Shown here piece after piece: positions 4,321-46,931 of a DNA stretch of 64,000 bases (positions are counted from its first letter, which is position 1; each line of letters opens with the position of its first letter). Source of the DNA: Sphaerisporangium perillae (GTDB taxonomy: Bacteria; Actinomycetota; Actinomycetes; Streptosporangiales; Streptosporangiaceae). A program made the position numbers and the translations under genes. Below the pieces are notes generated by a model that had not been told where the DNA came from, searched no databases, and saw nothing but the letters and a program-made list of their open reading frames with translations. The stretch is taken from contig NZ_JALLPO010000013.1 in assembly GCF_023276435.1 (NCBI RefSeq), positions 124,001 to 188,000 of the forward strand, written 5' to 3'.

Positions 4321-4350
4321 TCGGTGGAGCATCACCGAGAGGAACCGGCC

Positions 4351-12833: not shown

Positions 12834-12849
12834 TGGCGATCTACCTTCC

Positions 12850-13037: not shown

Positions 13038-13114
13038 TGGCGCGCCCTGCAGGATTCGAACCTGCGACCGTCGGATTAGAAGTCCGATGCTCTGTCCAGC
13101 TGAGCTAAGGGCGC
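13038..13114 (-). tRNA. tRNA-Arg (anticodon TCT)
   Basis: Read on the minus strand, GCGCCCT (5' acceptor arm) pairs with AGGGCGC. A D-arm (TAGCTCAGCTGGACAGAG), an anticodon loop ACTTCTAAT with TCT, and a T-arm GGTTCGAATCC-type loop are all present. The CCA end is encoded (13040-13038). Its 3' end faces the AICE, so it is the likely attB. The intact T-arm and 3' end mean integration restored the gene. Confidence 0.95.
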
Positions 13115-27749: not shown

Positions 27750-27859
27750 GGGTGTAGCTCTTCTACAGTGACCTGCTGAGCTGGGCGTTTGCTGTCCTGG
27801 CTGTTTGATCGTGAAACCGCCTTCTACTGTGGGTGTAGGCGTGCGAGGCGGTGGCGGCG
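27750..27859 (+). repeat. Terminal inverted repeat region, left
   Basis: Similar to the reverse complement of 31845-31954 over its whole length with scattered changes and small gaps: shared blocks GGGTGTAGCTCTT, CTGTTTGATC, AACCGCCTT and TACTGTG. It carries the IS end and the leader of ORF1. Confidence 0.85.
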
Positions 27860-31282: not shown

Positions 31283-31844
31283 CCGCCCGGTGACGGCGCG
31301 ATTGCGTCCCGTGACGCCGCGCCATCCTGCTCGGCCACCTCGCGAGCCACCGGATCGGTCACCGTGAACAATCCCGGCCCCTCTTCCGCGCCCAGCCGCG
31401 TTCCATCAGCCGCTTTGGCTTGGACCGCAGCCCCTCCCGCTTGGCGGCCTCATCTGGCAATCCCATCGCCACCGCGATCTGCCCGGCACGCATCGCCGCA
31501 CCGGCATCGGCCATGATCTCCACCGCGTCCCGGTAGGCGCGCGGCAGCACCCCCGCCTTCATGCCCGGCCGCCACGGCGGCACCGTCACCACACCCAGCA
31601 CCGGCGGCCGCACCGGCGCTGCGCCCGCCCCGGCGAGGCCGACCTGTCCTTCGGGCTCATCGAGCGGCCGGGCTGCTTCGCCCAGGATCTCCTCCACGGT
31701 CTCCCGCGTGATCGTCAGCCGTGACAACCGGTCCTGCTCGTCCTCCAGCTGTGACGCCAGCGCGGCGATCTGCTCGTGGATTTCCTCGATCCGCTGCCGG
31801 ACCACGGCTTCACGCCGCGCCAGTTCCCCCAGCAACGAGCCCAT
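31279..31844 (-). pseudogene. ISKra4-associated ORF1, right copy, frame-shifted
   Basis: Paralog of the left copy: LLGELARREAVVRQRIEEIH coiled coil, VEEILGEAARPL, VLPRAYRDAVEIMADAGAAM and RLMERGWA. A 1- or 2-base change at about 31,400 moves the frame to an early stop at 31359. In the ancestral frame the protein continues GPGLFTVTDPVAREVAEQDG and ends at 31279, overlapping the transposase GTG. So ORF1 and transposase formed one translationally coupled IS operon. Confidence 0.75.
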
Positions 31845-31954
31845 CGTCACCACCGCCTCACACCTTTGCACTCACAGTAAAAGGCGGTTCCCGGATCAAA
31901 CAGTCACGTCCGCAAAGGCCCAGGTCAGACACTCACTGCAAAAGAGCTACACCC
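31845..31954 (-). repeat. Terminal inverted repeat region, right
   Basis: Reverse-complement counterpart of 27750-27859. It begins GGGTGTAGCTCTT on the minus strand and leads to the ORF1 start at 31844. Confidence 0.85.
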
Positions 31955-32514
<560 letters not shown>

Positions 32515-32714: not shown

Positions 32715-33905
32715 TCAGTCGGTCACTCGCACGACGATCGCCGCTCCGGTGTCACCTGCTGCGCACCCGGTGAACAGGCCGATCCCCCCGCCGCGCAGCC
32801 GTAGTTCCTCAATGAGCTCGGCGATGGACCGCAACCCGGTCGGCGCCTGTGGATGACCGAAAATGAGGCTGCATCCATAGGAGTTCATGCGCTCCAAGGG
32901 GAAACCAAGCTTGCGGGAGAAGTAAACGTCGTTGACCGCGAAGGGATTATGGGTGGTCACCGCGTCCACCTGATCAATACTCAGGCCGGCGTCGTTCAGG
33001 GCTGCGAGTGCCGCGGGTACCGGTGCCTCCGGCATGCGGCTCCGGCCGACCCTCGCCATGCCGGTGGCCAGAATGTGTACGACGCCCTCTCCTCCGCTGA
33101 GCTCCCTTGCCTGTGCCACAGAAGTGACGATCGCCCCGGCGCACCCGTCGGCCGGATGAGTCTGAGTGGCGAAGGTGTGTGTGCCGCCCGGCGCGGCCGA
33201 CCGTAGCCTGGCGATTTCCTCTCGCACAACCGGGCGCACCCCCTCGTCGGCGTCAATCGTCGTCTTGGCGCCACGCCGCCCGGGAGCCTCTACGGGAACC
33301 AGATAGCGGCGCTGGAAGGCGCGGCCATCGGCGAGTGCCTTGTGGTATTGCTCCCAGCGCAGAATGGCCAGTTCGTCGAGTTCGGCCCGGGTAACTCCAG
33401 ACTCCGCCGCCACGGCATCACCCGCGGCCAGCATGGATGTGCCCGCCCAGGGATCGTGGGCGAAGCTGTCGAGCACCCAGTGCGTGGATTGCGGTGCGCC
33501 GCCGGGTGCGTTAGGGCGAGGGTAGAGCACTTGCGGGCCGTTGCTCGTGCGATCGGTCACGACGACGAGCTGGGTGCCGCCACCCGACGTGACCCGGCCC
33601 GCCGCGGCCTCCAGGGATGCCACAGAGGTCGCGCACGCCTGGCTGATCATGGGGCCGGACAGCCCCAATGCGCCGATCTGGGCGGCCAGTAGAGAAGCGC
33701 CGTAGAAGATGTCGGGCTGGGGCACCGTCCAGCCCAGAACCAGCCCGTCGAGGGCGTCCGGGGTCAGGTGCCGCACGGCGAGGGCACGTGCTGTGACATC
33801 GGCGGCCAGATCAAGGGCCGAGACGTCGGCCAGTGAACCCTGCCACCGGGCGAACGGCGAGCTCCATGCGTGCCCGGCCGGAATCGCCACGTCCTGGTAT
33901 TTCAT
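32715..33905 (-). CDS. Thiolase, probable beta-ketoacyl-CoA thiolase of the ketone pathway
   Basis: 396 residues. Thiolase landmarks: acyl-binding Cys91 in SQACATSV, His319 in THNPFAVND, His351 in IFGHPQAPTG and Cys381 in TGCAAGDTG. The usual NxxGG before GHP is NSYGCSLIFGHP, so this is a divergent member, but the catalytic set is kept. It would cleave a beta-ketoacyl-CoA (for example benzoylacetyl-CoA) with CoA to an acyl-CoA and acetyl-CoA. The start overlaps the CoA-ligase stop by 4 bases. Confidence 0.85.
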   Translation of the reverse strand: MKYQDVAIPAGHAWSSPFARWQGSLADVSALDLAADVTARALAVRHLTPDALDGLVLGWTVPQPDIFYGASLLAAQIGALGLSGPMISQACATSVASLEAAAGRVTSGGGTQLVVVTDRTSNGPQVLYPRPNAPGGAPQSTHWVLDSFAHDPWAGTSMLAAGDAVAAESGVTRAELDELAILRWEQYHKALADGRAFQRRYLVPVEAPGRRGAKTTIDADEGVRPVVREEIARLRSAAPGGTHTFATQTHPADGCAGAIVTSVAQARELSGGEGVVHILATGMARVGRSRMPEAPVPAALAALNDAGLSIDQVDAVTTHNPFAVNDVYFSRKLGFPLERMNSYGCSLIFGHPQAPTGLRSIAELIEELRLRGGGIGLFTGCAAGDTGAAIVVRVTD

Positions 33906-35734
33906 GAACCCTCCTTGCGTGAAGAGACGATGACCTCGCCGGGCGGCGCGTCGCGGTAGAGAAGGCCGACCAGTTCTGCTCGTTGAGCCAGCACTCGCCG
34001 CTGATTCACATAGCCCTTGTCGGTGATCTCACCGGCGTCCAGAGTGGCTGGACGTGCCATGACCAGGAGCCGTTGAATCCGCGACGCCGAGCCGGCACTG
34101 GCGTTCAGCTCGCCCAGGATCGGCGCCAGGTACGCGGCCAGCTCGGCGGAATACAAGACCTCGCCCTGGGTGTCTGGGAGCTCGCCGAGCACGCGGCCGG
34201 CCTCGGTGGCATTGAGCCAGGCCAGGGCGCACACGTCGCCACGGTTCTCTCCGACTATGACGGCGTCGGAGAGAACCGGCGCGGCCGACAGGAGCGCGGT
34301 GCGCAGCGAGCCCACGCGTACGAAGGTGCCGGTGGACAACTTGAAGTCCTCGGCGAGGCGCCCGCGGAACAGCAGCCCCGCATTGGGGTCGGCCGGATCG
34401 GCGAAGCTCACCGCATCCCCGGGGCAGTAGAAGCCCTCCTCGTCGAAGGCCGCGTCGGACAGATCCGGGCGGCGGTGGTAACCCGGCGTGATCAGCTTGC
34501 CCCGTACGCGAATCTCATAACTGTCCTCGTCGGCCGGAACGAGCTTGAGCGTCACACCCGGCAGCGGAACGCCGATGCAGCGCGCGTCGGTGTAGTCGAA
34601 GTGGGCCGTGGTGGCCGCCGGCGCCGTCTCCGTCGTGCCCCAAGATCCGGTCACCGGAATGTCTCGTCCGGTGGCCTCCCGGGCAAGCACCTTCAGCCGA
34701 TGCCGCAGCGTGGACGGCAGCGCCGCCGCCGCGTTGAACAGCAGGCGGATACGGTCGAAGAACCGCTCGGCAAGATCGTGGTCCCGCTCCAATGCAGGAA
34801 CGAGCTGCGCCCAGCCGGATGGCACGTTGAACGCCAGCGTGGGTGATACGTCCCGATAGTTGGCCAGGCTCCTGGCCAGCAGTCCGGGGGTCGGGCGTCC
34901 ATCGTCGATGTGGAGAGTGCCACCGTTGGCCAGCACCATGTTTACGTTGTGATTGCCGCCGAAGGTGTGGCTCCACGGTAACCAGTCCACGAGCACGGGT
35001 CGCTCCCCCGTCAGGAACGGCCAGACCTGCCGCATCATCTGCTGATTGGCGCACAACATGCCGTGGGTGGTGATGACACCCTTCGGCATCCCCGTCGAGC
35101 CGGAGGTGAACAAGATCTTGGCAACGGTGTCATCGGCGATCTGCGCACCGGCGTCCGCCACCTCCCTGCCGGGCGCCGTCGAGAGCAACGCGTCCAGTGA
35201 GTGCTCAGCCGGGCCGCCCACCGCGGAAATCAGCATCGGGTCGCCGCCCAGCGCCGACACCGCGGGACGGAACGGCTCGACGTCCTCGGCGTACACCGCG
35301 CCCGGCCGTACGAGTTCGCCGATCATCTTGATTCGGGCGTGGTCACGGCTCTGCAGCGAGTACGCCACACTGATCGGTACCACCGGGATACCGGCGGTCA
35401 TCGCGCCGAGCGTCATCAGCAGATGCCCGACGGAGTTGCCGGACAGGACCATCAGCGGCCGCTCGCTCGACAGGCCTCGCTCGTGCAGTGCCTGCCCTAT
35501 CGAGTCGGCGGCGGCGAGCGCCTGGCTGTACGTCTTGCCCCACCACGTCCCGTCCGGCCCGCGCTGGGCGACGAGCATTTGCTCGGGGTCGAGCGCGGCC
35601 CACCCCCGTAGCATCTCGACGACGCCGCCGGGGCTGGGCTGCAGTGGCGTAGCCGACTCCAGCAGCACGCAGCCGTCCGCGCGGTCCCGGCGGACGATCG
35701 ACGGGCGTGAGTACAGGTGCGCTACTTTTTTCAT
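33902..35734 (-). CDS. Acyl-CoA ligase, feruloyl-CoA synthase-like
   Basis: 610 residues of the AMP-forming acyl-CoA synthetase family. P-loop-like motif TSGSTGMPKG (210-219), a GSWGTTETAPA motif near 370, and FYCPGDAV plus LLFRGRLAEDFKLSTGTFV further on. The overall pattern is closest to feruloyl-CoA synthases that act on aromatic acids. In an apc-type operon this position is held by benzoylacetate-CoA ligase (bal), so activation of a beta-keto aryl acid is the likely role. It overlaps the thiolase gene and follows a strong hairpin. Confidence 0.85.
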   Translation of the reverse strand: MKKVAHLYSRPSIVRRDRADGCVLLESATPLQPSPGGVVEMLRGWAALDPEQMLVAQRGPDGTWWGKTYSQALAAADSIGQALHERGLSSERPLMVLSGNSVGHLLMTLGAMTAGIPVVPISVAYSLQSRDHARIKMIGELVRPGAVYAEDVEPFRPAVSALGGDPMLISAVGGPAEHSLDALLSTAPGREVADAGAQIADDTVAKILFTSGSTGMPKGVITTHGMLCANQQMMRQVWPFLTGERPVLVDWLPWSHTFGGNHNVNMVLANGGTLHIDDGRPTPGLLARSLANYRDVSPTLAFNVPSGWAQLVPALERDHDLAERFFDRIRLLFNAAAALPSTLRHRLKVLAREATGRDIPVTGSWGTTETAPAATTAHFDYTDARCIGVPLPGVTLKLVPADEDSYEIRVRGKLITPGYHRRPDLSDAAFDEEGFYCPGDAVSFADPADPNAGLLFRGRLAEDFKLSTGTFVRVGSLRTALLSAAPVLSDAVIVGENRGDVCALAWLNATEAGRVLGELPDTQGEVLYSAELAAYLAPILGELNASAGSASRIQRLLVMARPATLDAGEITDKGYVNQRRVLAQRAELVGLLYRDAPPGEVIVSSRKEGS

Positions 35735-35768
35735 GGCTACGACTCCTCGGGCTCGGGAGAGCCTTGGT

Positions 35769-35799
35769 GGGCGGCGACCGGTCCGGACGGTCGCCGCCC
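35769..35799 (-). promoter_or_regulatory. Strong intercistronic hairpin
   Basis: A perfect 12-bp stem (GGGCGGCGACCG and CGGTCGCCGCCC) with a 7-base loop, in the 96-base gap between the 226-residue protein gene and the CoA-ligase gene. No T-run follows on the minus strand. It may set different transcript levels or mRNA stability for carboxylase and ligase/thiolase parts. Confidence 0.6.
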
Positions 35800-35830
35800 C
35801 CTCGTATACGGAAGGGGACGAACGGGGCGG

Positions 35831-36511
35831 TCAGCCGCGTACGGCGTTGATCCAGTCCCGCAGCACTTCGATGTCGGTGTGACGGGAGAGTTGCCGGTCC
35901 GTCACGGTGACCCCGCGTCCCGCACCCGGCGTGTCCAGCGAGACGACGGTGGCCGCGGCCAGCCCATACCGGGTGACCGGGTGGCACAGTGCCAGTGCCT
36001 GGTGGAAGCGCGCGACATTGGCCAGGGTCGACAGGCCGGCGCCGGAGGGTTCGGCGTGGTCGCCGATCAGGATGACGTCCGCTCCGGCGGCCAGGAACCT
36101 CCTTCCCAGCGCCAGTACGGCGTCGGCTGCGGCGTCGGGTCCGGCCGCGCAGCAATCCATGATCGCGGCAGGGCCGGGCAACTCCGCGACCAGCGCGATC
36201 CGGTCCCCCGCCGAGGCGCGCAGCCGGCGGGTCGCTTCGAGGGCGACGTCGAGCTGCTCGCTGGAGAGGAGTCGCGCCGTGTCGGGGCAGCCGACCAGGA
36301 GCACCTCGGGGGCGGTGACGGGCACGCCGTCCGGATCCACCGCTTCGGTCAGATCCCGCAGTGCGTTGGCGAGATGGGTGGGGTCGTAGACGAAGTCCTC
36401 GGCGTCGCGTTCCTGGATACGAGCCGCCACTTGCAGTGCCAGGGGAATGGCGAGCACGCCGCCCTCTTGACCGGCAAGCAGCGCCCGTACCGCATTGCGA
36501 GGGGTAGTCAC
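35831..36511 (-). CDS. Unidentified protein in the ketone carboxylase operon (ApcE position)
   Basis: 226 residues. It looks like part of an alpha/beta barrel: EVLLVGCPDTARLLS, AGDRIALVAELPGPAAIMDC, ADVILIGDHAEPSGAG. The pattern vaguely recalls URO-D/CmuA-like barrels, but I would not assign it. It lies between the HyuB-type subunit and the CoA ligase, the place of apcE in the Aromatoleum operon as I remember it, although ApcE is larger (about 34 kDa). The gap to the HyuB gene is 4 bases, so it is co-translated. Confidence 0.6.
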   Translation of the reverse strand: MTTPRNAVRALLAGQEGGVLAIPLALQVAARIQERDAEDFVYDPTHLANALRDLTEAVDPDGVPVTAPEVLLVGCPDTARLLSSEQLDVALEATRRLRASAGDRIALVAELPGPAAIMDCCAAGPDAAADAVLALGRRFLAAGADVILIGDHAEPSGAGLSTLANVARFHQALALCHPVTRYGLAAATVVSLDTPGAGRGVTVTDRQLSRHTDIEVLRDWINAVRG

Positions 36512-36515
36512 CGGA

Positions 36516-38570
36516 TCACATCCGGATCAGCGGGGTGACGACCGAGCCGTCGGGCCAGGAGCCGAAGAACTCTAGGATCTCCTCCGGCGGCTTGCGCTGA
36601 GACCAGTCGGCCTCGAACTCCTCGTAAGGCCGGCCCCGCTCCAGCCGGGCCGCGATCATGCTCTCCCGGCTCGCCCGGGTGGCCTCGTCGTCGACCCGGC
36701 CGCTGACCGGGTCGATCGCGACGCCGTAGATGTCGCGGGCCACATGGACGGAGACCAGGTTCTTGGTGACGTCGGCTGCCACGGAAGCCGGATCGCGGGC
36801 GAGCGGATCGCCGTACCCCGTACCTCCGGTCGACAGGCCGACGATGATGCTCTGCCCACCCGGCACCGGGTGCACCGCGCTGCCGTAGGGCCCGGACACG
36901 ACGGTGCCGCCGAACTCGCCCCGCAGCAGTGCCTCCAGCGTCAGAGTTCCTGTCTTGGCCGAGGCCATCGCCTCGGCGACGTCGATGCCGTCAAGCCTGA
37001 TGCCGGGCACGGTGGGCGGGGCGTACCCGCCGAAGAGTGGCTGCGGCGTCTGGATGACGGAGTTGTCGGCGATCGCCATCTGGAACAGCATCGGCACGTG
37101 GTGGGTGACCCACAACTGGGCCGTTCCGACCCCTCCGCGGTGCTTGCCGTGCCCGCCGCTGTCCTTCCAGTGCGAGGAGAACGGGATCAGCATGGGGAAC
37201 TCGTTCTCCATGCTCTCCACGTCCGGGGCGCGACCGAACGCGCACCATGGGAAGCCGTAGGCGTCCATGCCGTCGCTGGTGGCCCGGGCGCCCTGGCCCT
37301 CGGTGTTGATCGGATAGGCGATCATGTCGGCAAAGTTGGCACCCCACTGGCTGACTCCGGCGAGCACGATGGCGTTGCCGCCGTTGCCCTGACTGGCGGC
37401 CACCTGCTTCCACTCGTCGGAGCCGAATCTGGCACGGCTGATGCAGTTGGCCACGGCGCTCATGGCGCCGGTCGCCGCCATCACCGAGCAGGACGTGGCG
37501 GCCCGCGCGTCGGGCGAGAGGATCGAGTTCGGCGGGAAGACGAAGTCGATCGGCTCGAAGGTGGCCGAGCTGACCGGCAGGTCGTGGAAGACGTACTCGT
37601 AGATGTAGTTGGCCATGTGGCCGATGACGGCCTGCGGGTGGGCGTTGTAGCTCGACGGGGTCTCCGGGCTGGTGCCGGTGAAGTCGAACAGCAGGTGGTC
37701 GCCCTTCTTGATCATCGTCATCGCGCAGTTGCGGATGAGGCCGGGAGCCAGCCCGGCCGCGTCGCTGAAGGTCACCGTCCGGTAGGTGCCATCGGGCCAG
37801 TGAGCGATGCGCTTGCGGGCGCCCGCCTCTGCTTCGTCGAGCATCCGGCGCATAAGCCCGACCACGAAGTCCTTGCCCTCGCGGGCGATCATCTCCAGCA
37901 GCCGCACCCGCACCCGGTCGGCTGTGGTCGCACGGGCCCGCATGTCCACCGTGACGTTGGCCTCGGCGCGGATGCCGAAGGCGGCGAACATCTCCAGGAC
38001 ATCGGTGTTGATCTGAAAGTCGGTTCCGACGCGCATGGGCGGCAGGTTCATGCCCTCCTGGAACCGGGCGGTGGCCGCCAGCGGCATCCCACCCGGCTCC
38101 ACCGCGCCGGTCTCGGTGGTGTGGGACAGCGCCGCCGTCCACGCCACCAGCTCGCCTTCGAAGAACACCGGCATGATCGCAACTTGGTCGGGGTTGTGGA
38201 TTCCGCCGTAGAGCGCGTCGTTGGTATACCAGATGTCCCCGTCGTTGATCCCGGGGTTCTTCGAGTGCCGGGACAGGATGTACTTGATGACGATCGGGGG
38301 GATGACCGCGTGCAGGTAGGTGCCCGCCGAGGCGTTTACCAGATCGCCGGCCGCGTTGAAGATCGCCACGATCGAGTCGCCGGCCACGCCCATGGACGAC
38401 CGGGACGAGCGCATGAAGATCTCGTATCCCTCGTCGAGAATGTCGGCGGTACGCTGCACCCCGATCTCGTAGTCGCCGGGTCGCAGCGAGTCGGCGCAGG
38501 CGCGCTCGTACGCGCTGGGAGCGGAGACCTTCAGTGCCGCGAGCTTCTCCTCCAGTGTCGGGTGGCTCAT
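36516..38570 (-). CDS. HyuB-type carboxylase subunit (ApcD-like)
   Basis: 684 residues, full length for the hydantoinase B/oxoprolinase family. Conserved pieces: LDEGYEIFMRSSRSSMGV, GDLVNASAGTYLH, GDIWYTNDALYGGIHNPDQ, FDFTGTSPETPSSYNAH and GGHGKHRGGVG. Members form the carboxylating or ring-opening half of ATP-dependent hydantoinases, acetone and acetophenone carboxylases. The start overlaps the HyuA stop as ATGA. Its estimated mass (about 75 kDa) fits ApcD. Confidence 0.87.
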   Translation of the reverse strand: MSHPTLEEKLAALKVSAPSAYERACADSLRPGDYEIGVQRTADILDEGYEIFMRSSRSSMGVAGDSIVAIFNAAGDLVNASAGTYLHAVIPPIVIKYILSRHSKNPGINDGDIWYTNDALYGGIHNPDQVAIMPVFFEGELVAWTAALSHTTETGAVEPGGMPLAATARFQEGMNLPPMRVGTDFQINTDVLEMFAAFGIRAEANVTVDMRARATTADRVRVRLLEMIAREGKDFVVGLMRRMLDEAEAGARKRIAHWPDGTYRTVTFSDAAGLAPGLIRNCAMTMIKKGDHLLFDFTGTSPETPSSYNAHPQAVIGHMANYIYEYVFHDLPVSSATFEPIDFVFPPNSILSPDARAATSCSVMAATGAMSAVANCISRARFGSDEWKQVAASQGNGGNAIVLAGVSQWGANFADMIAYPINTEGQGARATSDGMDAYGFPWCAFGRAPDVESMENEFPMLIPFSSHWKDSGGHGKHRGGVGTAQLWVTHHVPMLFQMAIADNSVIQTPQPLFGGYAPPTVPGIRLDGIDVAEAMASAKTGTLTLEALLRGEFGGTVVSGPYGSAVHPVPGGQSIIVGLSTGGTGYGDPLARDPASVAADVTKNLVSVHVARDIYGVAIDPVSGRVDDEATRASRESMIAARLERGRPYEEFEADWSQRKPPEEILEFFGSWPDGSVVTPLIRM

Positions 38571-40699
38571 CGCCCGCCCTCCTTCTCGATGACGCCGAGT
38601 GCGTGCTGGTCGATGCTCATTTGCTGGCCGGGCGGAACGACGATCGTCGAGTACTCCATCTCGACGATCGCCGGGCCAGTGACGACATTGCCCGGCCGGA
38701 GTGCGTCGAAGGCGAAGACCTCGGTATCGCGCCGTTCGCCGAGTTCGGGCCAGTACGCCGGTCTGGCGCCGGAACGGGCCGCCGACGGGTCGGCGGCTTC
38801 GAGTGGATAGGTGGGCAGATCGAGCTTCTCGGTGAGAACGGTGGCCTTGAGGACGATGGCGTCGAGGTAGACCCCGCCGGGCCGGTTCACCACATGAGGG
38901 CTGAAGGCGTCGGCGAACTCCTTTTCGAACTCCTCGTACACGAGGCGGGCGTCGTCATCGGACTCTATGGTGATGACCGGCGAAGAGACTCGCTTGACCT
39001 GCACCAGCCCGCCGTACAGCATGTCGAGTTCGACGCTGAAGACGGTCTCACGGTCGCTCAGCCCCTCGGCCTCCAGATCCTTTCGTGCGCGCCGCATCAG
39101 CTCCTCAACCCGGGCGTTGAACGCCTCCAGGTCGATCACGATCTCCTCGGTGACGGGCGCCATGAACTGCATACGGCCGCTCTGTTCGTAGACGTGCATG
39201 ATGTCCATGACGGAGCTGCCCAGCGCCGAGAAGACCGGAGCCTGCGGGAAGATCACCGCGGTGGGCACGTCGGCACGGTAGCCCGCCACGTGCGTAGGCC
39301 CGCCACCGCCGAAGGCGAACAGGACGAAGTCCTCCGGGTGGTAGCCGCGCAGGTGGACCTCACGCTTGATCGCCGAGGCCATGTTCTGCTCGACGATGCG
39401 GCGGACGAGGGCGGCCGCCTCGTCCACGGTCACGCCGAGCGGATCGGCGATCTTCGTACGGATCGCTTCTACAGCCTTGTCCCTGTTCAGGGGCATGTTG
39501 CCGCCGAAGTACCCATCCGGGGAGATGTAGCCGAGAACGACGTCGGCGTCGGTGACGGTGGGCTCGGTACCGCCCAGGTCGTAGCAGACCGGACCCGGGT
39601 AGGACCCGGCGCTGCGCGGCCCCACCTCCAGGCGGCCGCCGAGCAGGTCGTTGATCCAGGCGATTGAGCCGCCCCCCGCACCCATGGTGGTCGTCTGCAG
39701 CATCGAGATGCCGACCATCCATCGATCGATGATCGGCCGGAACTCGTACGACCGGACTGACGCGTCCACCACCATGCCGACGTCGAAGCTGGTACCGCCG
39801 ACGTCCGAGGCGATCACGTTGCGGTAGCCGAGTGCCTTGCCGATGTGGAAGGAACCCATCAAGCCGGAGACCGGTCCGCCGTTGAAGGTCCGGCTGGCGG
39901 TGGTCTTGAAGATCTCCGCACTGCCGCCGGTATTGTGGGTGAGCAGGAACGTGCCCCGGTAACCGTTCTCCCGCAACTGGTCCCAGGTGGTCTCCAGCTC
40001 GAATTTGATGCTGGTCTGCAGATAGGCGTCCAGCACGGCGGTCATGGTCCGCTCGTACTCGCCGACCTTGCCGACAACCTCGTGCGACAGGACCACCGGC
40101 AGATAGCCGACGTGGTAGCTCTTGTACTCCTCGCGGATGATCCGGCGGATCACCCGCTCGTGCTCCGGGTTGGCGAACGACCACAGCAGCGACACGGCGA
40201 TGGCGCGGGCTCCCCGGTCGACGAGGTCGCGCAGCTTGGCGCGCACGTCGTCCTCGTCCAGCGCCCGGATCACGTTCCCGGCCGAGTCGATCCGCTCGGC
40301 CACGCCGACGATCATGTCGCGCCGCACCAGTGGCTCGGGCTTGCGCTGCACGGCCAGATTGCGGCGCTCGCCGATACGCGTTCCGTCGGTCCACTGGGCG
40401 CCGCGGCCGATGAGGATCGCGTCCTCGTGGCCCTCGGTGGTGATCAGACCAAGCCTGGGCCCCTTCCGCTCGATCAGCCGGTTCATCGCCACCGTCGTGG
40501 AGTACCGGACGATCTCGATGTGCGGCAGCACCTCCTGTAGCGGGCGACCGAGCTGAGCGGCCCCGGCGTGCAACACGTTGAGGAAGCCGACCGACAGGTC
40601 GTAGGGCGTGGTGGGCGACTTGGCAACGACCCGCCGGTCGTCCCAGGTCAGCACCATGTCGGTGAAGGTGCCGCCCACATCGATGTCGATCGCCTTCAT
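38567..40699 (-). CDS. HyuA-type carboxylase subunit 2 (ApcC-like)
   Basis: 710 residues from ATG 40699, which overlaps the small-subunit stop. ASKHA-type ATP-binding blocks: DIDVGGTFTDMV at the start, YSTTVAMNRLIERKGPRLGL, NVIASDVGGTSFDVGMV and FAFGGGGPTHVAGY. The family phosphorylates the substrate or carboxyl group with ATP. It is a paralog of the HyuA gene at 41081; two HyuA-type subunits in one operon is a trait of acetophenone carboxylase (ApcA and ApcC), not of acetone carboxylase. Confidence 0.87.
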   Translation of the reverse strand: MKAIDIDVGGTFTDMVLTWDDRRVVAKSPTTPYDLSVGFLNVLHAGAAQLGRPLQEVLPHIEIVRYSTTVAMNRLIERKGPRLGLITTEGHEDAILIGRGAQWTDGTRIGERRNLAVQRKPEPLVRRDMIVGVAERIDSAGNVIRALDEDDVRAKLRDLVDRGARAIAVSLLWSFANPEHERVIRRIIREEYKSYHVGYLPVVLSHEVVGKVGEYERTMTAVLDAYLQTSIKFELETTWDQLRENGYRGTFLLTHNTGGSAEIFKTTASRTFNGGPVSGLMGSFHIGKALGYRNVIASDVGGTSFDVGMVVDASVRSYEFRPIIDRWMVGISMLQTTTMGAGGGSIAWINDLLGGRLEVGPRSAGSYPGPVCYDLGGTEPTVTDADVVLGYISPDGYFGGNMPLNRDKAVEAIRTKIADPLGVTVDEAAALVRRIVEQNMASAIKREVHLRGYHPEDFVLFAFGGGGPTHVAGYRADVPTAVIFPQAPVFSALGSSVMDIMHVYEQSGRMQFMAPVTEEIVIDLEAFNARVEELMRRARKDLEAEGLSDRETVFSVELDMLYGGLVQVKRVSSPVITIESDDDARLVYEEFEKEFADAFSPHVVNRPGGVYLDAIVLKATVLTEKLDLPTYPLEAADPSAARSGARPAYWPELGERRDTEVFAFDALRPGNVVTGPAIVEMEYSTIVVPPGQQMSIDQHALGVIEKEGGR

Positions 40700-41070
40700 C
40701 GGGTCGCCTCCAGCTTGCCGTGCTCGTCGATGCGAACCGCGCCCGAAGCGAGCCGGGCCATGATGGCGTCGACGTCCAGCGCGGTGTCCTGGGTCAGGGG
40801 GTGGCCGGGGGGCAGGTATTCGGTTTCCACCTGCCTTCCGCAACCGGGGCAGTAGAACTCGACGATGCGGATCCAGTCGCCGTTGGGCGCGAAGGTGTAC
40901 GCGCCCTCCAGCACCGGCGGATGCACCTCGCGGGGATCGCGTTCGGCCACCAGGAGGCCGCGCTTGTAGTCCGAGCGCAGCGGCCCGAAGTCGTGCCCGC
41001 ACTCGTGGCAGTGCCAGCGTTCGGTGTCCAGGTCGGCATCGAGATACTCGCCGACGTGCAGTCTGGGCAT
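40696..41070 (-). CDS. Small zinc-ribbon carboxylase subunit (ApcB/AcxC-like)
   Basis: 124 residues, about 14 kDa. Two CxxC pairs, CHEC and CPGC, about 50 residues apart, would bind a metal; around them are GHDFGPLRSDYKRG, LVAERDPREVHPP and EFYCPGCGRQVETEY. The sequence style is that of the gamma subunit of acetone carboxylase and the 15-kDa ApcB. It lies between the two HyuA genes, 10 bases from the first and overlapping the second. Confidence 0.75.
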   Translation of the reverse strand: MPRLHVGEYLDADLDTERWHCHECGHDFGPLRSDYKRGLLVAERDPREVHPPVLEGAYTFAPNGDWIRIVEFYCPGCGRQVETEYLPPGHPLTQDTALDVDAIMARLASGAVRIDEHGKLEATR

Positions 41071-41080
41071 GTCTCGTCTC

Positions 41081-42970
41081 CTACTCGCGGGTCAGGGACG
41101 CATCGCCGAACGCGTCTGTGGACAGGGACCAGCCGCGGGTGACCAGCCAGGTGTAACTGCCGCCGTCGACCAGCAGCGGCCCGGTCAGGTCGACGCTGGC
41201 CAGTTCGACGCCGTCGTAAGTGGCCAGCGAACCGTCGGCGCCGAAAGGCGAGGGCCGGCCTCCGGTCGCCTCGGTCTCGCCCGGTCCGTCGATTTCCGAC
41301 TGCCGCAGCCTTGGCAGCGGATGGCGTGCGGTGAGTCGGACGAGCGTCGGCTCGCCGTCGTGCGGTGCGGGCGGCAGCTCGCCTTCCCCCTGTACCGCGC
41401 CCTTCGCTGACCTGACGTCCCAGTGGAGGAACGCGACGGAGGGGTCGAATCCCTCGGCCCGCAGGTCCCGGCGCGCCTGGTCCGCCAGGTGTGCGCCGAC
41501 GCTTTCCAGGTGCCCGCGGTCGGTCAGGGCCGACTCGTAAACATGCACCACATCGGAGATGGCCGAGCCGTAGGCCGAGTAGACGTGCCCGTAGCGGAAG
41601 AACCTCGCGTTGCGGGCACCGAGCCGTTCGGCGACGGCGGTGACGAACAACGGGCCGTTGCCTCCGTAAGCGTAGATGACGCAGTCGGCCGGATCCCAGC
41701 CCGCCTCTTCGGCGGTCCCCCTGGCGAGTTGGGCGACGGCGTCCCAGGCGGCCTCGACGACAGCCTGGGCGGCGGCCGGCGGGGCCAGCCCGAGCGGCGT
41801 GCCGACGTGCTTGTCGAGCGCGGTCCGGGCGCGGTCGGCGTCGAGGACGCGTTTGCCTCCCAGGAAGGCGGTTGGTGAGATGAACCCGCACAGAAAGAAC
41901 GCGTCGGTGACCGTGGCGTTGCGGCCGCCGAGCCCATAGCAGGCCGGTCCCGGCGCGGCGCCCATGCTGTCGGGGCCGAGCACGACCCGGCCGTCGGTCA
42001 CCCGGGCGACGCTGCCCCCGCCCAGGGCCATCGAGCGCAGCAACGGCATGTCCAGCCGCAGCGGAATGTCGAAGAGGTGGCCCGATTCCTTGGAGACCAC
42101 CTGGCCGGCCCGTACCGCGCTGGCCTTGGCGGTGGTGCCGCCCACGTCGATCGCGATGACCTTGTCGTCGCCGAACCTGCCCGCTGTGACCGCGCAGGCG
42201 TGCGTGCCGAACAGCGGCCCGGACTCGATGGTGTCGAACGCCTTGGTCTTGCCAATGCGCGCGACGCCTCCGTTGATGTGGCCGATCAGGACGTTTCCCT
42301 GCCAGCCGTGCTCGTCGCGGACGATCTCCTCGGCCCGGTAGAGCGAGGTGGCCAGGGCGGGGTGCACATAAGCGTTGATGAGAGAGGCGACGGTACGCGT
42401 GCTGTCGTCCGGGCGGAGCACCACGTCGCTACCGGCCAGCGCTGGGATAGAGCCGAGGAAGTGGTCCGGGTAGTCCTGCGCGATCATGTCGATGATGCGC
42501 CGTTCGGCTTGGCCGTCAGGGAAGGCGTCGCGCAGGCTGACGTTGATGCGGCGGATGCCCTTGTCCAGCAGTGATTTGATCGCCAGCCGCAGTTCGTGCT
42601 CGTCGGCGTCCGAGGGGATGCCGCTGATGTCCCCGGCCGAGACCAGCACGCCGACGACCGCCCGCGCGGCCTCCTCGTCGTACAGATCCTTCTCGTGGCC
42701 GGCGCTGACCAGCAGGCCGAGCTTGGGGCCGACCCGCTGGGCGAGGACGTTCGACGTGATGGTGGACGACCACCGGATCACCTCGACCCGGTCAAGGAAA
42801 GAGCGCAGGTCGGCAAAGCCGAACTCCCGCTGAGCCGCCTTGAGGATGTCCAGGAACGCGACCGTTACATCGTGGGGTGTCGTCTCGACCTTGAGCGCCA
42901 GGACCGTCCCGCCTCCGCAGACGAGGCCGTCGGTCATGGTGCCGCCGGTGTCGATGTCGACGTTGTACAT
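41081..42970 (-). CDS. HyuA-type carboxylase subunit 1 (ApcA-like)
   Basis: 629 residues from ATG 42970, preceded by GGAGGTGTTGGC, the best ribosome site of the operon. ASKHA blocks: VDIDTGGTMTDGLV, WSSTITSNVLAQRVGPKLGL, KVIAIDVGGTTAKASAVR and YAYGGNGPLFV. It is shorter than the second HyuA subunit and about 67 kDa, as expected for ApcA (about 70 kDa). It is the first structural gene after araC, and a perfect 10-bp hairpin lies just upstream of its ribosome site. Confidence 0.87.
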   Translation of the reverse strand: MYNVDIDTGGTMTDGLVCGGGTVLALKVETTPHDVTVAFLDILKAAQREFGFADLRSFLDRVEVIRWSSTITSNVLAQRVGPKLGLLVSAGHEKDLYDEEAARAVVGVLVSAGDISGIPSDADEHELRLAIKSLLDKGIRRINVSLRDAFPDGQAERRIIDMIAQDYPDHFLGSIPALAGSDVVLRPDDSTRTVASLINAYVHPALATSLYRAEEIVRDEHGWQGNVLIGHINGGVARIGKTKAFDTIESGPLFGTHACAVTAGRFGDDKVIAIDVGGTTAKASAVRAGQVVSKESGHLFDIPLRLDMPLLRSMALGGGSVARVTDGRVVLGPDSMGAAPGPACYGLGGRNATVTDAFFLCGFISPTAFLGGKRVLDADRARTALDKHVGTPLGLAPPAAAQAVVEAAWDAVAQLARGTAEEAGWDPADCVIYAYGGNGPLFVTAVAERLGARNARFFRYGHVYSAYGSAISDVVHVYESALTDRGHLESVGAHLADQARRDLRAEGFDPSVAFLHWDVRSAKGAVQGEGELPPAPHDGEPTLVRLTARHPLPRLRQSEIDGPGETEATGGRPSPFGADGSLATYDGVELASVDLTGPLLVDGGSYTWLVTRGWSLSTDAFGDASLTRE

Positions 42971-42991
42971 GCCAACACCTCCAATTCGAAC

Positions 42992-43014
42992 GTGAGCCGG
43001 CGAAGCCGGCTCAC
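42992..43014 (-). promoter_or_regulatory. Leader hairpin of the ketone carboxylase operon
   Basis: GTGAGCCGGC and GCCGGCTCAC form a perfect 10-bp stem with a GAA loop, about 10 bases upstream of the ribosome site of the first HyuA gene. It could end the araC transcript, protect the operon mRNA, or attenuate it. Confidence 0.55.
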
Positions 43015-43061
43015 CGCCGCGGTGTGACACACCCGACAGCGTCACGGAGATGTTCGACAAA

Positions 43062-43100
43062 TTACGCGTGTAACGTCAATGCTTCGTAGTGTTAACTACG
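43062..43100 (-). promoter_or_regulatory. Promoter/operator region of the carboxylase operon
   Basis: Two short palindromes lie in an AT-richer stretch: TTAC-GCGT-GTAA (43062-43073) and CGTAGT-GTTA-ACTACG (43085-43100). This is the only such stretch between araC and the first HyuA gene, so it is the likely control region. AraC proteins usually bind direct repeats, so the palindromes may serve another factor. Confidence 0.4.
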
Positions 43101-43141
43101 CCGGTCGCACAGAGGACTGCACGATCGGCACAGAACGTCGT

Positions 43142-44101
43142 TCAGGTGCGGCGCAACGCCATCTCGCGGAACAGGCGCGGGGTGATGCCTTCGACCGCGC
43201 GGAAGAGCCGGGCGAACGCCGACGGGTTCACCATGCCGTGCGATTCGGCGATCCGTGCGATCGGCCGCTGTGCCAGCCGGGGATCGGCGAGATCCCGGCG
43301 GATCGCGATCAGGCGCTCCTGCCGAATCTGGGTGCTTACTGACCGTTCGTGGCGTTCGAACAGCGCGTGCAGCCGCCGTACCGAGATCCCGTGCCGGTGC
43401 GCGATGAGCGCGGGATCGAGGGATGGGTCGGCGTGGTGTTCGGCGATGAAGGCCAGGACCGAGTGCAGGAGCACCGCGTCCCGGTCCGCGACGTCCCATG
43501 GCTTGCCGAAGTGAGAGCGGACCATCGTCGCGATCAGGTCGGCGGCGTTCTCACCGAGAGCGGCCGCACCCGGATCGCCCTCGAAGAAACGGGCCTCGGT
43601 GGCCAGGTTGCGCAGGAACTGGAAGACCACCCGTGCGACGCCGCGCTCGGACGACAGCGGGACGGCAGTGATCTGCGCCAACTCGCTCTCCGGGCGGCGT
43701 AGCTTCACCTTGGGTAGCAGGAAGACCTGCCAGTGGAATCGCTCCTCCATCACCAAGGTGAACGGCCGCGAGCTGTCATACACGACCATGTCACCTGGCC
43801 CAAGGACGGCCTCCCTGCCGTCCTGGATCAGGATCGATCCCCCCTGCAGGGGTGTCCCGATCTGCACGGTCTCGGGATCGCCGCGGCGCAGGCAGGCCTG
43901 GTCGCGGGTGTACACGTGATCGCCACCGACCACGTCCCTGATGCGCAGCGATCCGAGGGTGCTGCATGCCATGCCCGCCTGCGGGACGCGGTCATGACGG
44001 GGGTCGATGCTCACCGGAAGGATCTGATTGCAGACGACCTCCAGCCAGAACTGCAGGCGTTGCGCAGGAGGTTGAGTGCTTGTCACGAATTTGTCACCCA
44101 C
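43142..44101 (-). CDS. AraC-family regulator of the ketone carboxylase operon
   Basis: 319 residues. N-terminal AraC-ligand-binding-type sensor (about 10-190: RLQFWLEVVCNQILPVSID, GPGDMVVYDSSRPFTLVM) and C-terminal double HTH (about 220-315: DPALIAHRHGISVRRLHALF, QRPIARIAESHGMVNPSAFA, RLFRAVEGITPRLFR). The sensor resembles those of aromatic-catabolism activators. It is on the same strand, 171 bases upstream of the first HyuA gene, and probably activates it in response to substrate. Confidence 0.88.
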   Translation of the reverse strand: MGDKFVTSTQPPAQRLQFWLEVVCNQILPVSIDPRHDRVPQAGMACSTLGSLRIRDVVGGDHVYTRDQACLRRGDPETVQIGTPLQGGSILIQDGREAVLGPGDMVVYDSSRPFTLVMEERFHWQVFLLPKVKLRRPESELAQITAVPLSSERGVARVVFQFLRNLATEARFFEGDPGAAALGENAADLIATMVRSHFGKPWDVADRDAVLLHSVLAFIAEHHADPSLDPALIAHRHGISVRRLHALFERHERSVSTQIRQERLIAIRRDLADPRLAQRPIARIAESHGMVNPSAFARLFRAVEGITPRLFREMALRRT

Positions 44102-45341: not shown

Positions 45342-45755
45342 GTGACGATGACGAAGCACGACCTGGAGGCCGGCGGGCCTCGGGCTGATCGACCGAAGCG
45401 CCGGCACTTCTCGGCGGAGTACAAATTGCGGGTGGTCGCCGAGTACGACGCCGCCTCGTCCGGCGAGAAGGGTGCCATTCTCCGGCGTGAGGGGTTGTAT
45501 GACTCCAGCATTCAGTTGTGGCGTAAGCAGCGCGACGAGGGCGCCTTGAAGGGCGTGTCCGGAGAAAAGCAGGTCACTTCGGGCGAGGCGGCGAGGGAGC
45601 GGGCGAAGGAGAAGGCTGAGAGGGAGAAACTGGAGCGCGAGAACGCCCGTCTGAAGAAGAAGCTCGCGCAGACCGAGGCCGCCCTGGAGATCATGGGGAA
45701 GTGGCACGCGCTCTTGGAGACGATGTCCGAGAGCGCGGACTCGGAGAACTCGTGA
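45342..45755 (+). CDS. IS3-family transposase OrfA
   Basis: 137 residues: HTH (FSAEYKLRVVAEYDAASSGEKGA, LRREGLYDSSIQLWRKQRDE) and a leucine-zipper helix (REKLERENARLKKKLAQTEA). This is the DNA-binding part of IS3 transposases, normally joined to OrfB by -1 frameshifting. The gene itself is intact. Confidence 0.88.
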   Translation: MTMTKHDLEAGGPRADRPKRRHFSAEYKLRVVAEYDAASSGEKGAILRREGLYDSSIQLWRKQRDEGALKGVSGEKQVTSGEAARERAKEKAEREKLERENARLKKKLAQTEAALEIMGKWHALLETMSESADSENS

Positions 45756-46618
45756 CCGGGCTGCGCGACGAAGCCCGTGAGCAACTCGAACCCCATGTCG
45801 GCATTCAAGGGTCATGCATGCTGACCGGGATCAACCGATCGACGCTGTATCGGCGGCGGGCGCCGAAGCAGAGCAGGCCGGAAACGGTGCGGCCGACCCC
45901 GCCGAACGCGCTGTCCAAGGAAGAATGCGATGAGCTGATCCGAGTTCTCAATAGCCGCGAGTTCGTGGACAAGTCGCCTCGCCAAGTGTGGGCGATCTTG
46001 ATCGATCGCGGCGTCTACCTGGCGTCGGTGTCGACGATGTACCGGGGTGATGCGTGCGCAGGGCCTGGTCCGCGAGCGGCGTGCTCTGGCCCGGCACGAG
46101 GCCAAGAAGAAACCGCATCTGGTCGCCAGAGCTCCCAATGAGGTGTGGAGCTGGGATATCACCAAGCTCCCGTCCGTCGAGCGGGGAAAGTACTTCGAGC
46201 TGTATGTGATGATCGACATCTTCTCGCGGTGCGTGGTGCATTGGGAGGTGCACGTCCGCGAATCTGCGGAGCTTGCGAAGCAGTTCATTGAGAACTGCAT
46301 CCGGGCCAATGGCGGAACTGCGCCGCGGACGATTCACTCCGACCGGGGCCCGTCGATGACGTCGAAGTCAGTGGCGAACCTGCTGTCGGACCTGGACATC
46401 GTAAAGTCACATTCTCGGCCGAAGGTGAGCAACGACAACCCGTACAGCGAGGCGAACTTCAAGACTATGAAGTATTGCCCGACATTCCCGGAGGTGTTCG
46501 GGTCGGCGCAGGACGCGCGAACGTTCTGCCGTCGATTCTTCGAGTACTACAATCATCGGCACTATCATTCGGGAATCGGGCTGCACACGCCATTTACCGT
46601 GCATATCGGCACCGCGCA
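45752..46618 (+). pseudogene. IS3-family transposase OrfB, frame-shifted and truncated
   Basis: HTH-like front (GSCMLTGINRSTLYRRRAPK), then SPRQVWAILIDRGVYLASVS. An extra G at about 46,044 breaks the frame (MYRGDA instead of MYRVMRAQG). The rve core continues: ARAPNEVWSWDITKLP (first Asp), IHSDRGPSM (second Asp) and SNDNPYSEANFKTMKY (Glu). The last ~20-40 residues are lost after HIGTAQAI. No active enzyme is made. Confidence 0.82.
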
Positions 46619-46620
46619 GG

Positions 46621-46931
46621 CTATTCAAGGGTCGGGGCGCACACCGCGATCGCCAAGCGGCTGGCACTGCCGGTTCCGGAGCCGCCGTCGAACGCGCTCG
46701 ACAGAGACTCGTAATTGGGCGGCTCGACCTCGGTGAGCCGAGTGGACCGTCCGACCTCGACGATGCCGCGCGCCAGGTTGTAGTCGAACTGGATCGACCG
46801 AGCCACCTCGGGCATTTCCTCCGAAGGAACCGGGACCCAGATGGCCGGGGTGATCGTCTCGATCCTCCCGGAGATCTGGTTCTCCCGGCGGAAGCCGTAA
46901 ACGAACAGGACGGTCGTGTAGGCCGCCTGGC
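46621..46931 (-). pseudogene. Unidentified gene fragment next to the IS3 element
   Basis: The minus strand gives a protein-like stretch: TVLFVYGFRRENQISGRIET, AIWVPVPSEEMPEVARSIQF and TRLTEVEPPNYESLSSAF, ending at the IS junction. I do not recognise it, and it has no proper start; it is probably the middle of a gene cut by the IS and by rearrangement with the Mut7-C gene. Confidence 0.4.

What the first reader, a model, noticed from the sequence alone, without database searches (positions are those of the whole stretch)
32715..44101. Complete ATP-dependent ketone carboxylation locus in an actinomycete
Gene order is araC, HyuA, small zinc-ribbon, HyuA, HyuB, unidentified protein, acyl-CoA ligase, thiolase. 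It parallels apcABCDE-bal for acetophenone as described in Aromatoleum, including two HyuA paralogs and a ~14-kDa CxxC subunit, and adds the thiolase for the last step. It predicts ketone to beta-keto acid to beta-ketoacyl-CoA to acyl-CoA plus acetyl-CoA. Such systems are best known from anaerobic proteobacteria; an aerobic actinomycete version with its own regulator would be notable. Substrate could be another aryl or alkyl ketone.
Basis: partly seen in the sequence, partly recalled or inferred. Interest (0 to 1): 0.78.

Follow-up and report, generated by a model that had tools for sequence, protein, structure and literature searches.

The report
Acetophenone-type carboxylase operon with thiolase
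An actinomycete carries a full set of genes that looks able to add CO2 to an aromatic ketone, attach coenzyme A and split the product into a benzoyl-CoA-like unit and acetyl-CoA; it is a variant of a known bacterial system, with a candidate for its unassigned last enzyme in the same operon.

Summary
On the minus strand lie an AraC-like regulator and one tight run: apcA-apcB-apcC-apcD-X-acyl-CoA ligase-thiolase. Both HyuA proteins fall in the two different subunit clades of Aromatoleum acetophenone carboxylase (Apc), not with hydantoinases or oxoprolinases; Zn subunit and HyuB match Apc far better than acetone carboxylase. The 'unidentified protein' X is the fifth subunit, ApcE: its model matches solved ApcE 9fou first. 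Six of seven proposed pocket residues equal Apc's. No subunit reaches its NCBIfam equivalog cut-off, so it belongs to the Apc branch and is not shown to be acetophenone carboxylase. Twenty related contigs were found; a thiolase is linked in 8 of 17 with DNA past apcE. In one MAG the run continues into benzoate-CoA ligase, boxC and boxB. BoxB occurs in 19 of 20 of these genomes, though it is also common without apc; the host has two. Likely route: aryl ketone, beta-keto acid, aroyl-CoA, aerobic box pathway. Actinobacterial apc clusters are already in print; the thiolase and box links I did not find there.

The parts
43142..44101 (-). AraC-family regulator (AraC_binding_2 + HTH_18), nearest NCBIfam model FeaR but below its cut-off; likely regulator of the operon (inferred from place)
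   Evidence: Pfam; NCBIfam (106 bits, cut-off 199); a 55% identical AraC sits at the same place in Modestobacter lapidis L018
41081..42970 (-). apcA: HyuA-type subunit alpha-prime, proposed bicarbonate kinase
   Evidence: PDB 5l9w_b E=1e-158; NCBIfam ApcA 634 bits, cut-off 1250; tree clade with Aromatoleum ApcA, SH-aLRT 99; E248/D274/K281 kept
40696..41070 (-). apcB: small Zn-ribbon subunit (two CxxC pairs), Acetone_carb_G domain
   Evidence: PDB 5l9w_C 161 bits against 35 for acetone carboxylase; Pfam PF08882; NCBIfam ApcB 177.5 bits, cut-off 250
38567..40699 (-). apcC: HyuA-type subunit alpha, proposed ketone kinase
   Evidence: PDB 5l9w_B 1073 bits against 348 acetone carboxylase and 341 oxoprolinase; pocket residues 6 of 7 as in Aromatoleum; tree
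36516..38570 (-). apcD: HyuB-type core subunit
   Evidence: PDB 5l9w_A 935 bits against 166 acetone carboxylase; NCBIfam ApcD 1021 bits, cut-off 1500
   Evidence: phmmer 9fou E=7e-5 for the whole protein; NCBIfam ApcE 40 bits, cut-off 450; model pLDDT 93.1; Foldseek first three hits 9fou, E=7e-15, prob 1.00
33902..35734 (-). acyl-CoA ligase of the PRK12582 family, in the slot of Bal (beta-keto acid-CoA ligase)
   Evidence: NCBIfam PRK12582 695 bits, cut-off 777; 53-54% to the ligases of the Pseudonocardia and Blastococcus apc loci and 74% to a ligase in the host's own box cluster L106
32715..33905 (-). thiolase with C91, H351, C381 motifs; proposed beta-ketoacyl-CoA thiolase of the pathway
   Evidence: Pfam; 66-70% to Pseudonocardia, 55% to the L032 copy a few genes before boxCB; motifs in 9 of 9 apc-linked thiolases aligned, this one included
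45342..46736 (+). IS3-like transposase (weak HTH_Tnp_1 match and rve integrase core; 'IS3-like' is my label) upstream of the operon; flanking, not part of the enzyme system
   Evidence: Pfam; one full copy in the genome and two partial relatives
32179..32514 (+). integrase-core remnant (rve_3) downstream of the operon; flanking
   Evidence: Pfam

Best explanation
This is an Apc-type, biotin-independent, ATP-dependent ketone carboxylase operon with its downstream steps. Proposed working: ApcC phosphorylates the enol form of an aryl methyl ketone and ApcA phosphorylates bicarbonate, each with one ATP; ApcD and ApcB complete the core; ApcE is needed to finish the carboxylation; the resulting beta-keto acid (benzoylacetate or a close relative) is bound to CoA by the PRK12582-type ligase and cleaved by the thiolase to an aroyl-CoA and acetyl-CoA. 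The aroyl-CoA then enters the aerobic benzoyl-CoA (box) pathway, which the same genome encodes elsewhere. Shown here: gene content, family, subunit phylogeny, conserved residues, modelled ApcE fold, operon conservation, and presence of box genes. Inferred: the reactions, the substrate, the flow between the two clusters and control by the AraC protein. I put the chance that the substrate is an aryl alkyl ketone at about 0.8 and that it is unsubstituted acetophenone at about 0.5.
For: Subunit order and set apcABCDE, which PMC5214803 gives as the mark of Apc clusters. Scores against solved structures: apcC 1073 bits to Apc against 348 and 341 to acetone carboxylase and oxoprolinase; apcD 935 against 166 and 146; apcA 533 to its Apc chain, 240 to the other Apc HyuA chain and 169 to the best non-Apc chain; apcB 161 against 35. 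Tree of 84 HyuA sequences: each paralogue sits in the clade of its own Aromatoleum counterpart, SH-aLRT 100 and 99. Pocket residues M F N P I Q T against L F N P I Q T in Aromatoleum (6 of 7); acetone carboxylase shares 2 of 7, oxoprolinase 4, methylhydantoinase 2. X models as ApcE, and an ApcE follows apcD in 18 of 18 related loci whose DNA runs past apcD. Of 17 loci with DNA past apcE, 16 have a CoA ligase within about 2 kb of the apc genes and 8 a thiolase without stops in the matched stretch. L032: apcABCDE-thiolase-benzoate-CoA ligase (742 bits, over cut-off)-hydrolase-boxC-boxB-regulator, the last three over their cut-offs. BoxB over cut-off in 19 of 20 apc genomes and twice in the host, with two boxC, while 10 of 10 other members of the host genus lack both ApcB and BoxB matches. 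The host box cluster carries a 74% relative of the operon's ligase. G339, another genome of the order with an Apc-like Zn subunit (160 bits), also has BoxB.
Against: All five Apc subunits miss the NCBIfam equivalog cut-offs, ApcE widely (40 of 450 bits). BoxB is common anyway: 111 of 345 genomes in the host's order and 52 of 62 Pseudonocardia, so the co-occurrence says little for the three Pseudonocardia entries; no background was measured for the proteobacterial ones, and the 20 genomes are not independent (L024, L026 and L031 carry nearly identical apcC). One apc genome, L017, has no BoxB; G343 of the order, with an Apc-like Zn subunit of 112 bits, has no BoxB match either. The ligases near apc belong to several families, so 'Bal' is named by place, not descent. 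No full thiolase was found in 9 of 17 loci with DNA past apcE; L017 has little room there, and L016 keeps a remnant. Oxoprolinase keeps 4 of the 7 pocket residues, so the pocket match is only partly specific. Nothing here shows expression or activity.
Confidence: 0.8

Rival explanations
1. Same chemistry, but the true substrate is a substituted or longer aryl ketone (hydroxy- or methoxyacetophenone from lignin, propiophenone) and the product is not benzoyl-CoA itself.
For: Apc-type enzymes are diverse and the 2017 structure paper warns against reading substrate from sequence. Pocket position 281 is Phe in the window group and Tyr in the Pseudonocardia and all but one of the proteobacterial loci aligned. 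The L017 locus stands beside PaaA/PaaC/PaaD-like and PaaK-like genes and its genome has no BoxB match, so other ring-opening routes may be served.
Against: boxC and boxB in line with apc in L032, BoxB in 19 of 20 genomes, window pocket nearly identical to Aromatoleum Apc. For 4-hydroxyacetophenones Rhodococcus GD02 uses a kinase plus biotin carboxylase, Hpe (PMC9618137, passages).
Confidence: 0.35
2. An acetone or alkyl-ketone carboxylase.
For: The Zn subunit is in Pfam Acetone_carb_G and the chemistry is shared.
Against: Acetone carboxylase clusters have one HyuA gene and no epsilon subunit; here there are two HyuA genes and ApcE; scores and pocket residues favour Apc.
Confidence: 0.05
3. An ATP-dependent hydantoinase, oxoprolinase or lactamase, misread because HyuA and HyuB are shared.
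For: HyuA and HyuB domains are the defining parts of those enzymes too; oxoprolinase keeps 4 of 7 pocket residues.
Against: They consist of two subunits, without the Zn subunit, second HyuA and ApcE; the tree keeps both window HyuA apart from 6yra, 7hk5 and the three further HyuA proteins found in the host.
Confidence: 0.03
4. An acquired island that no longer works, with X a shortened remnant of ApcE.
For: Transposase pieces lie on both sides; 10 of 10 other genomes of the genus lack an ApcB match; X is 226 aa against 303 in the solved ApcE; a Blastococcus MAG keeps only a remnant of its thiolase.
Against: All frames are open and overlapping; ApcE of 203-241 aa is the rule among relatives, 16 of 17 complete ones, and X models with high confidence; catalytic and pocket residues are kept.
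Confidence: 0.07

Closest known systems
Acetophenone carboxylase apcABCDE-bal of Aromatoleum aromaticum EbN1
   Same: Gene order apcABCDE then a CoA ligase; two HyuA-type kinase subunits, HyuB, Zn subunit, epsilon subunit; motifs, pocket and alpha-prime residues largely the same
   Different: Here ApcE is short and very divergent, the ligase is followed by a thiolase in the same run (in Aromatoleum the thiolase was 'so far unknown', PMC4729919), an AraC-like regulator stands in place of the two-component AdiRS named there, and scores lie under the equivalog cut-offs. Whether Aromatoleum Bal is in the PRK12582 family was not tested
apc loci of Pseudonocardia (P. dioxanivorans CB1190, P. sulfidoxydans, P. 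kujensis), found here
   Same: apcABCDE, thiolase (68-70%) and PRK12582-type ligase (53-54%) in one run
   Different: GntR-type regulator and an extra PaaK-like ligase upstream, thiolase before ligase, Tyr at pocket position 281
Salinisphaeraceae MAG locus L032, found here
   Same: apcABCDE-thiolase with 55% thiolase identity
   Different: Longer ApcE (269 aa, 146 bits to the ApcE model); benzoate-CoA-ligase-type ligase; boxC, boxB and a benzoate regulator follow
Acetone carboxylase AcxABC
   Same: ATP-dependent ketone carboxylation, HyuA/HyuB/Zn-subunit core
   Different: One HyuA, no epsilon subunit, other subunit lengths and pocket
Hpe pathway of Rhodococcus rhodochrous GD02
   Same: Aerobic actinobacterial carboxylation of an aryl methyl ketone, then a CoA synthetase
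   Different: Separate kinase and biotin-dependent carboxylase not homologous to Apc, CoA-ester hydrolase in place of thiolase (PMC9618137, passages). For acetophenone that paper proposes a Baeyer-Villiger monooxygenase

Membership tests
[quoted passage not shown]
Apc-type (acetophenone carboxylase branch) ketone carboxylases | Two HyuA paralogues, one in each of the Apc alpha and alpha-prime clades | tested here: met
   84 rows, quick method, SH-aLRT 100 and 99; the tool warns of long branches, among them acetone carboxylase, whose place is unsure
Apc-type (acetophenone carboxylase branch) ketone carboxylases | Zn subunit with four cysteines in two CxxC pairs | tested here: met
   alignment to 5l9w_C
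Apc-type (acetophenone carboxylase branch) ketone carboxylases | Fifth subunit ApcE (not present in every cluster) | tested here: met
   sequence (E=7e-5 whole protein, 0.046 for the best stretch alone), fold (E=7e-15)
Apc-type (acetophenone carboxylase branch) ketone carboxylases | Fingerprint R/KERiDsxG in alpha, not in alpha-prime | tested here: inconclusive
   apcC reads AERIDSAG: all but the first residue; apcA shows no such stretch (by eye)
NCBIfam equivalogs NF042960, NF042974-NF042977 (acetophenone carboxylase proper) | Score over the curated cut-off | tested here: not met
   634/1250, 177.5/250, 1186/1500, 1021/1500, 40/450 bits; so it is not filed as acetophenone carboxylase proper
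Acetophenone carboxylase proper | Carboxylates acetophenone with two ATP | not testable with these tools
   needs purified protein
Acetone carboxylase | acxABC, a single HyuA, no ApcE | tested here: not met
Hydantoinase/oxoprolinase | hydAB only, subunits in the hydantoinase branch | tested here: not met
Thiolase | Catalytic Cys-His-Cys (residues recalled, not from a call) | tested here: met
   QAC, GHP, GCAAG in 9 of 9 aligned; none of the 25 NCBIfam thiolase models shown is over its cut-off, so its substrate class is open

The most novel reading that the evidence does not exclude
The window and its relatives define a hybrid aerobic pathway that I did not find described in my searches: ATP-dependent Apc carboxylation of an aryl methyl ketone, CoA ligation, and an operon-borne thiolase that feeds benzoyl-CoA into the box epoxidation pathway. 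It occurs in actinobacteria and proteobacteria, needs no oxygenase before benzoyl-CoA, and carries a reduced UroD-like ApcE barrel that may be the site where CO2 and enol phosphate meet.
Probability: 0.45. Interest if true: 0.6.

Novelty: new variant of a known kind. Interest (0 to 1): 0.45.

Why it matters
By 2017 only one Apc enzyme had been characterised biochemically and close relatives of its fifth subunit were reported from two other clusters (PMC5214803); its thiolase was unknown in 2016 (PMC4729919). The group found here supplies a conserved short ApcE, a candidate thiolase, and named strains (Pseudonocardia dioxanivorans CB1190 among them) in which an aerobic route can be tested. It would be a third aerobic route for aryl methyl ketones in actinobacteria beside Baeyer-Villiger oxidation and the Hpe pathway.

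Tried and rejected
Rejected readings: hydantoinase, oxoprolinase, caprolactamase and acetone carboxylase (scores and tree). Decay of X: held unlikely because 16 of 17 complete relatives are equally short (starts there were chosen nearest to the window protein's start, so lengths are approximate).

Led nowhere: structural comparison by VIA-align was not available. No 16S match was found in the host assembly, so the host was placed only through its right flank, where 7 pieces covering 42% of a 16.1-kb query, spread over about 12 kb, align at 81% to Nonomuraea gerenzanensis (Streptosporangiaceae); its genus is not told. The operon has no megablast match among plasmid records, and the best plasmid HyuB protein is 43% identical to ApcD. 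A sample across the class found the ApcD group only in the host: 1 of 394 genomes at E<=1e-100.

Weak link kept in view: BoxB co-occurrence (19 of 20) loses weight against backgrounds of 111 of 345 and 52 of 62.

Rows set aside: of 53 loci, 20 were counted as Apc-type (L016-L033, L035, L036: ApcD 57% or more identical, with other Apc genes beside it) and 33 left out, among them L034 (41% ApcD, no other Apc subunit type seen) and L037 (Zn subunit 52%, apcC 37%, another type). One search scanned with six short peptide patterns, so it does not list all relatives. L031 and L035 end inside apcD (18 left for ApcE), L025 ends inside apcE (17 left for ligase and thiolase). L025 was left out of the ApcE alignment (18 rows with the window). 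Hits under 300 query residues and translations under 400 aa were left out of the tree, which removed among others the broken apcC of L028 and the cut apcC of L029; I did not count these rows.

Full report
What is there. The minus strand of window 32715-44101 holds eight open frames in one direction. After an AraC-family regulator come HyuA (629 aa), a 124-aa Zn-ribbon protein, a second HyuA (710 aa), HyuB (684 aa), a 226-aa protein, an acyl-CoA ligase and a thiolase. Three joints overlap by 4 bases and the largest gap from apcA on is 96 nt, as expected of one operon.

Which family. Pfam finds Hydantoinase_A twice, Acetone_carb_G, Hydantoinase_B, AMP-binding and Thiolase. In NCBIfam the best model of each of the five subunits is the corresponding acetophenone carboxylase equivalog, ApcA to ApcE, but none reaches its cut-off: 634 of 1250, 177.5 of 250, 1186 of 1500, 1021 of 1500 and 40 of 450 bits. 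Against solved structures, apcC scores 1073 bits with the Apc chain and 348 and 341 with acetone carboxylase and oxoprolinase; apcD 935 against 166; apcA 533 with its Apc chain, 240 with the other Apc HyuA chain and 169 with the best chain outside Apc; apcB 161 against 35. In a maximum-likelihood tree of 84 HyuA sequences, quick method, each window paralogue lies in the clade of its own Aromatoleum counterpart (SH-aLRT 100 and 99), away from the oxoprolinase and methylhydantoinase references and three further HyuA proteins of the host. The tool warns about long branches, including acetone carboxylase, whose place is unsure. Within the Apc branch the tree sets Aromatoleum and the Salinisphaeraceae MAG L032 apart from a second group that holds the window, other actinobacteria and proteobacterial MAGs (99 for both subunits).

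The unidentified protein is ApcE. Sequence search gave 9fou, acetophenone carboxylase epsilon subunit, at E=7e-5 for the whole protein, though the best stretch alone has only 0.046. An AlphaFold2 model from an alignment of 18 sequences (pLDDT 93.1, pTM 0.91) matches 9fou chains as the first three hits (E=7e-15, probability 1.00, TM by query 0.78), followed by Methanosarcina methyltransferases and uroporphyrinogen decarboxylases. The 2017 paper names close ApcE relatives in two other clusters only (PMC5214803, section 3 read whole). Here an ApcE follows apcD in 18 of 18 related loci whose DNA runs past apcD; 17 were read complete, 16 of them 203-241 aa and L032 269 aa (lengths depend on the start chosen). 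By the NCBIfam ApcE model four of these that I scanned score 146 (L032), 105 (L022), 28 (L030) and 25 bits (L018), all under its cut-off of 450. Fifteen columns are invariant in the 18-row alignment, among them N165 and F169 in an N-[VI]-x-x-F-[HY] stretch that the Aromatoleum protein also has.

Catalytic residues. The seven residues proposed to line the acetophenone pocket (PMC5214803) read M F N P I Q T in the window against L F N P I Q T in Aromatoleum, 6 of 7. Acetone carboxylase shares 2 of 7, methylhydantoinase 2 and oxoprolinase 4, so the match is suggestive and not fully specific. Glu248, Asp274 and Lys281 of alpha-prime are kept in all 18 non-reference apcA rows aligned, the window included. 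The two CxxC pairs of apcB are kept. The thiolase keeps QAC, GHP and GCAAG motifs, as do the eight other apc-linked thiolases aligned; that these hold the catalytic residues is recalled knowledge.

Relatives. A pattern scan of one genome for each of 84,980 species with ApcD gave 53 loci, of which 20 are Apc-type: a Blastococcus MAG, a Nitriliruptorales MAG, Modestobacter lapidis, three Pseudonocardia species, and 14 proteobacterial contigs, one of them Salinisphaeraceae. Of 17 with DNA past apcE, 16 have a CoA ligase within about 2 kb of the apc genes; the ligases belong to at least four kinds (PRK12582-type, PaaK-like, benzoate-CoA-ligase type, long-chain type). Eight have a thiolase related to the window's; a Blastococcus MAG keeps a thiolase remnant. 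A CoA-ligase step is thus nearly constant while the enzyme filling it changes. The group is rare: 1 of 394 genomes sampled across the class, the host itself, and 5 of 62 Pseudonocardia. In the host's order 8 of 345 genomes have an ApcB match at E<=0.001, most of them weak; G339 (160 bits) and G343 (112 bits) are the next best after the host.

Where the product goes. In L032 the run continues thiolase, benzoate-CoA ligase (742 bits, cut-off 375), a hydrolase, boxC (884, cut-off 712), boxB (856, cut-off 499) and a benzoate regulator (313, cut-off 204). BoxB is over its cut-off in 19 of 20 apc genomes. The host has two boxB and two boxC genes over cut-off, while 10 of 10 other genomes of its genus have neither a BoxB nor an ApcB match. 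One host box cluster (L106) starts with a ligase 74% identical to the operon's and ends with an amidohydrolase-like protein 63% identical to one beside the apc ligase in Blastococcus ('amidohydrolase' is named by eye, NCBIfam gave no match for the Blastococcus one). Against this: BoxB is found over cut-off in 111 of 345 genomes of the order and in 52 of 62 Pseudonocardia; the 20 genomes are not independent; L017 lacks BoxB and has PaaA/PaaC/PaaD-like genes beside apc instead; G343 has no BoxB match, G339 has one.

Mechanism. By the scheme proposed for Aromatoleum (PMC5214803): two kinase sites make enol phosphate and carboxyphosphate, ApcE is needed to complete the reaction, and a beta-keto acid leaves. 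Ligase and thiolase then give aroyl-CoA and acetyl-CoA. All reactions here are inferred from homology.

Setting. The operon lies between a transposase (45342-46736) and an integrase-core remnant (32179-32514), in DNA of 67-69% G+C between stretches of 71-73% on either side, though the first 16 kb of the window are as low or lower. The right flank aligns with Nonomuraea gerenzanensis at 81% in 7 pieces spread over about 12 kb; the operon has no megablast match in that collection and no Nonomuraea record among the ApcD matches at E<=1e-60. It is probably an acquired accessory operon in a member of Streptosporangiaceae or near it (inference).

What is known in print. Actinobacterial apc clusters: Rubrobacter xylanophilus (PMC5214803, section read; that it is an actinobacterium is recalled), Rhodococcus ruber Chol-4 apc1-4 (PMC6498646, passages), Paraconexibacter (PMC11737030, passage), and an Apc3 gene in Rhodococcus IGTS8 (PMC7358434, passage). 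Aromatoleum uses the pathway aerobically as well, and its thiolase was 'so far unknown', with two candidates named (PMC4729919, introduction read). Rhodococcus GD02 is proposed to use a Baeyer-Villiger monooxygenase for acetophenone and the biotin-dependent Hpe pathway for hydroxyacetophenones (PMC9618137, passages). The search for acetophenone with boxB and benzoyl-CoA gave 0 papers; benzoylacetyl-CoA with thiolase gave 2, one read in part (PMC4729919), the plant paper seen in the listing only; Pseudonocardia with acetophenone gave 9, 8 listed, none about apc by title, passages read of one (PMC10470539). The library lacks most subscription journals, and no title in the 29-paper listing is about the ApcE structure 9fou.

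Verdict. Observation confirmed, interpretation supported, novelty moderate: a variant of Apc-type ketone carboxylation with a linked thiolase, a reduced ApcE and a likely aerobic box outlet.

Noticed in passing
L017:142-3723 and 3793-5364: Beside apc in a Nitriliruptorales MAG lie PaaA-, PaaC-, PaaD- and PaaK-like genes, all below cut-offs, while its genome has no BoxB match: perhaps another aroyl-CoA epoxidase serves the product there.
   Followed up: partly
L106:6321-14052 (G000:C38): Host box cluster: PRK12582-type ligase, boxC, boxB, benzoate-CoA-ligase-like, amidohydrolase-like; a second boxB/boxC set lies in L107, and contig C47 has only short pieces of both genes.
   Followed up: partly
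L016:4487-5934: In the Blastococcus MAG the thiolase between ApcE and ligase is only a remnant, and a beta-lactamase-family-like frame (named by eye) stands before it.
   Followed up: no
ApcC position equivalent to Phe281: Phe in Aromatoleum, L032, the window, L016, L017 and L018; Tyr in the three Pseudonocardia and the other proteobacterial loci aligned: a possible mark of different ketones.
   Followed up: no
NZ_CP084319.1:156225-158246: Haloterrigena alkaliphila plasmid encodes a HyuB 43% identical to ApcD over 98% of its length, a possible haloarchaeal Apc-like system.
   Followed up: no
window 27749-28050 and 31654-31955: A 302-nt inverted pair, 75% alike, overlaps two frames (27851-28642 and 31359-31871) without Pfam match.
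   Followed up: no
window 10674-13114: Phage-type integrase (10674-12056) near tRNA-Arg (13038-13114): possible integrated element at a tRNA gene.
   Followed up: no
NZ_LT559118.1: PLSDB holds an 11.85-Mb Nonomuraea gerenzanensis record titled plasmid; its size suggests a chromosome.
   Followed up: no
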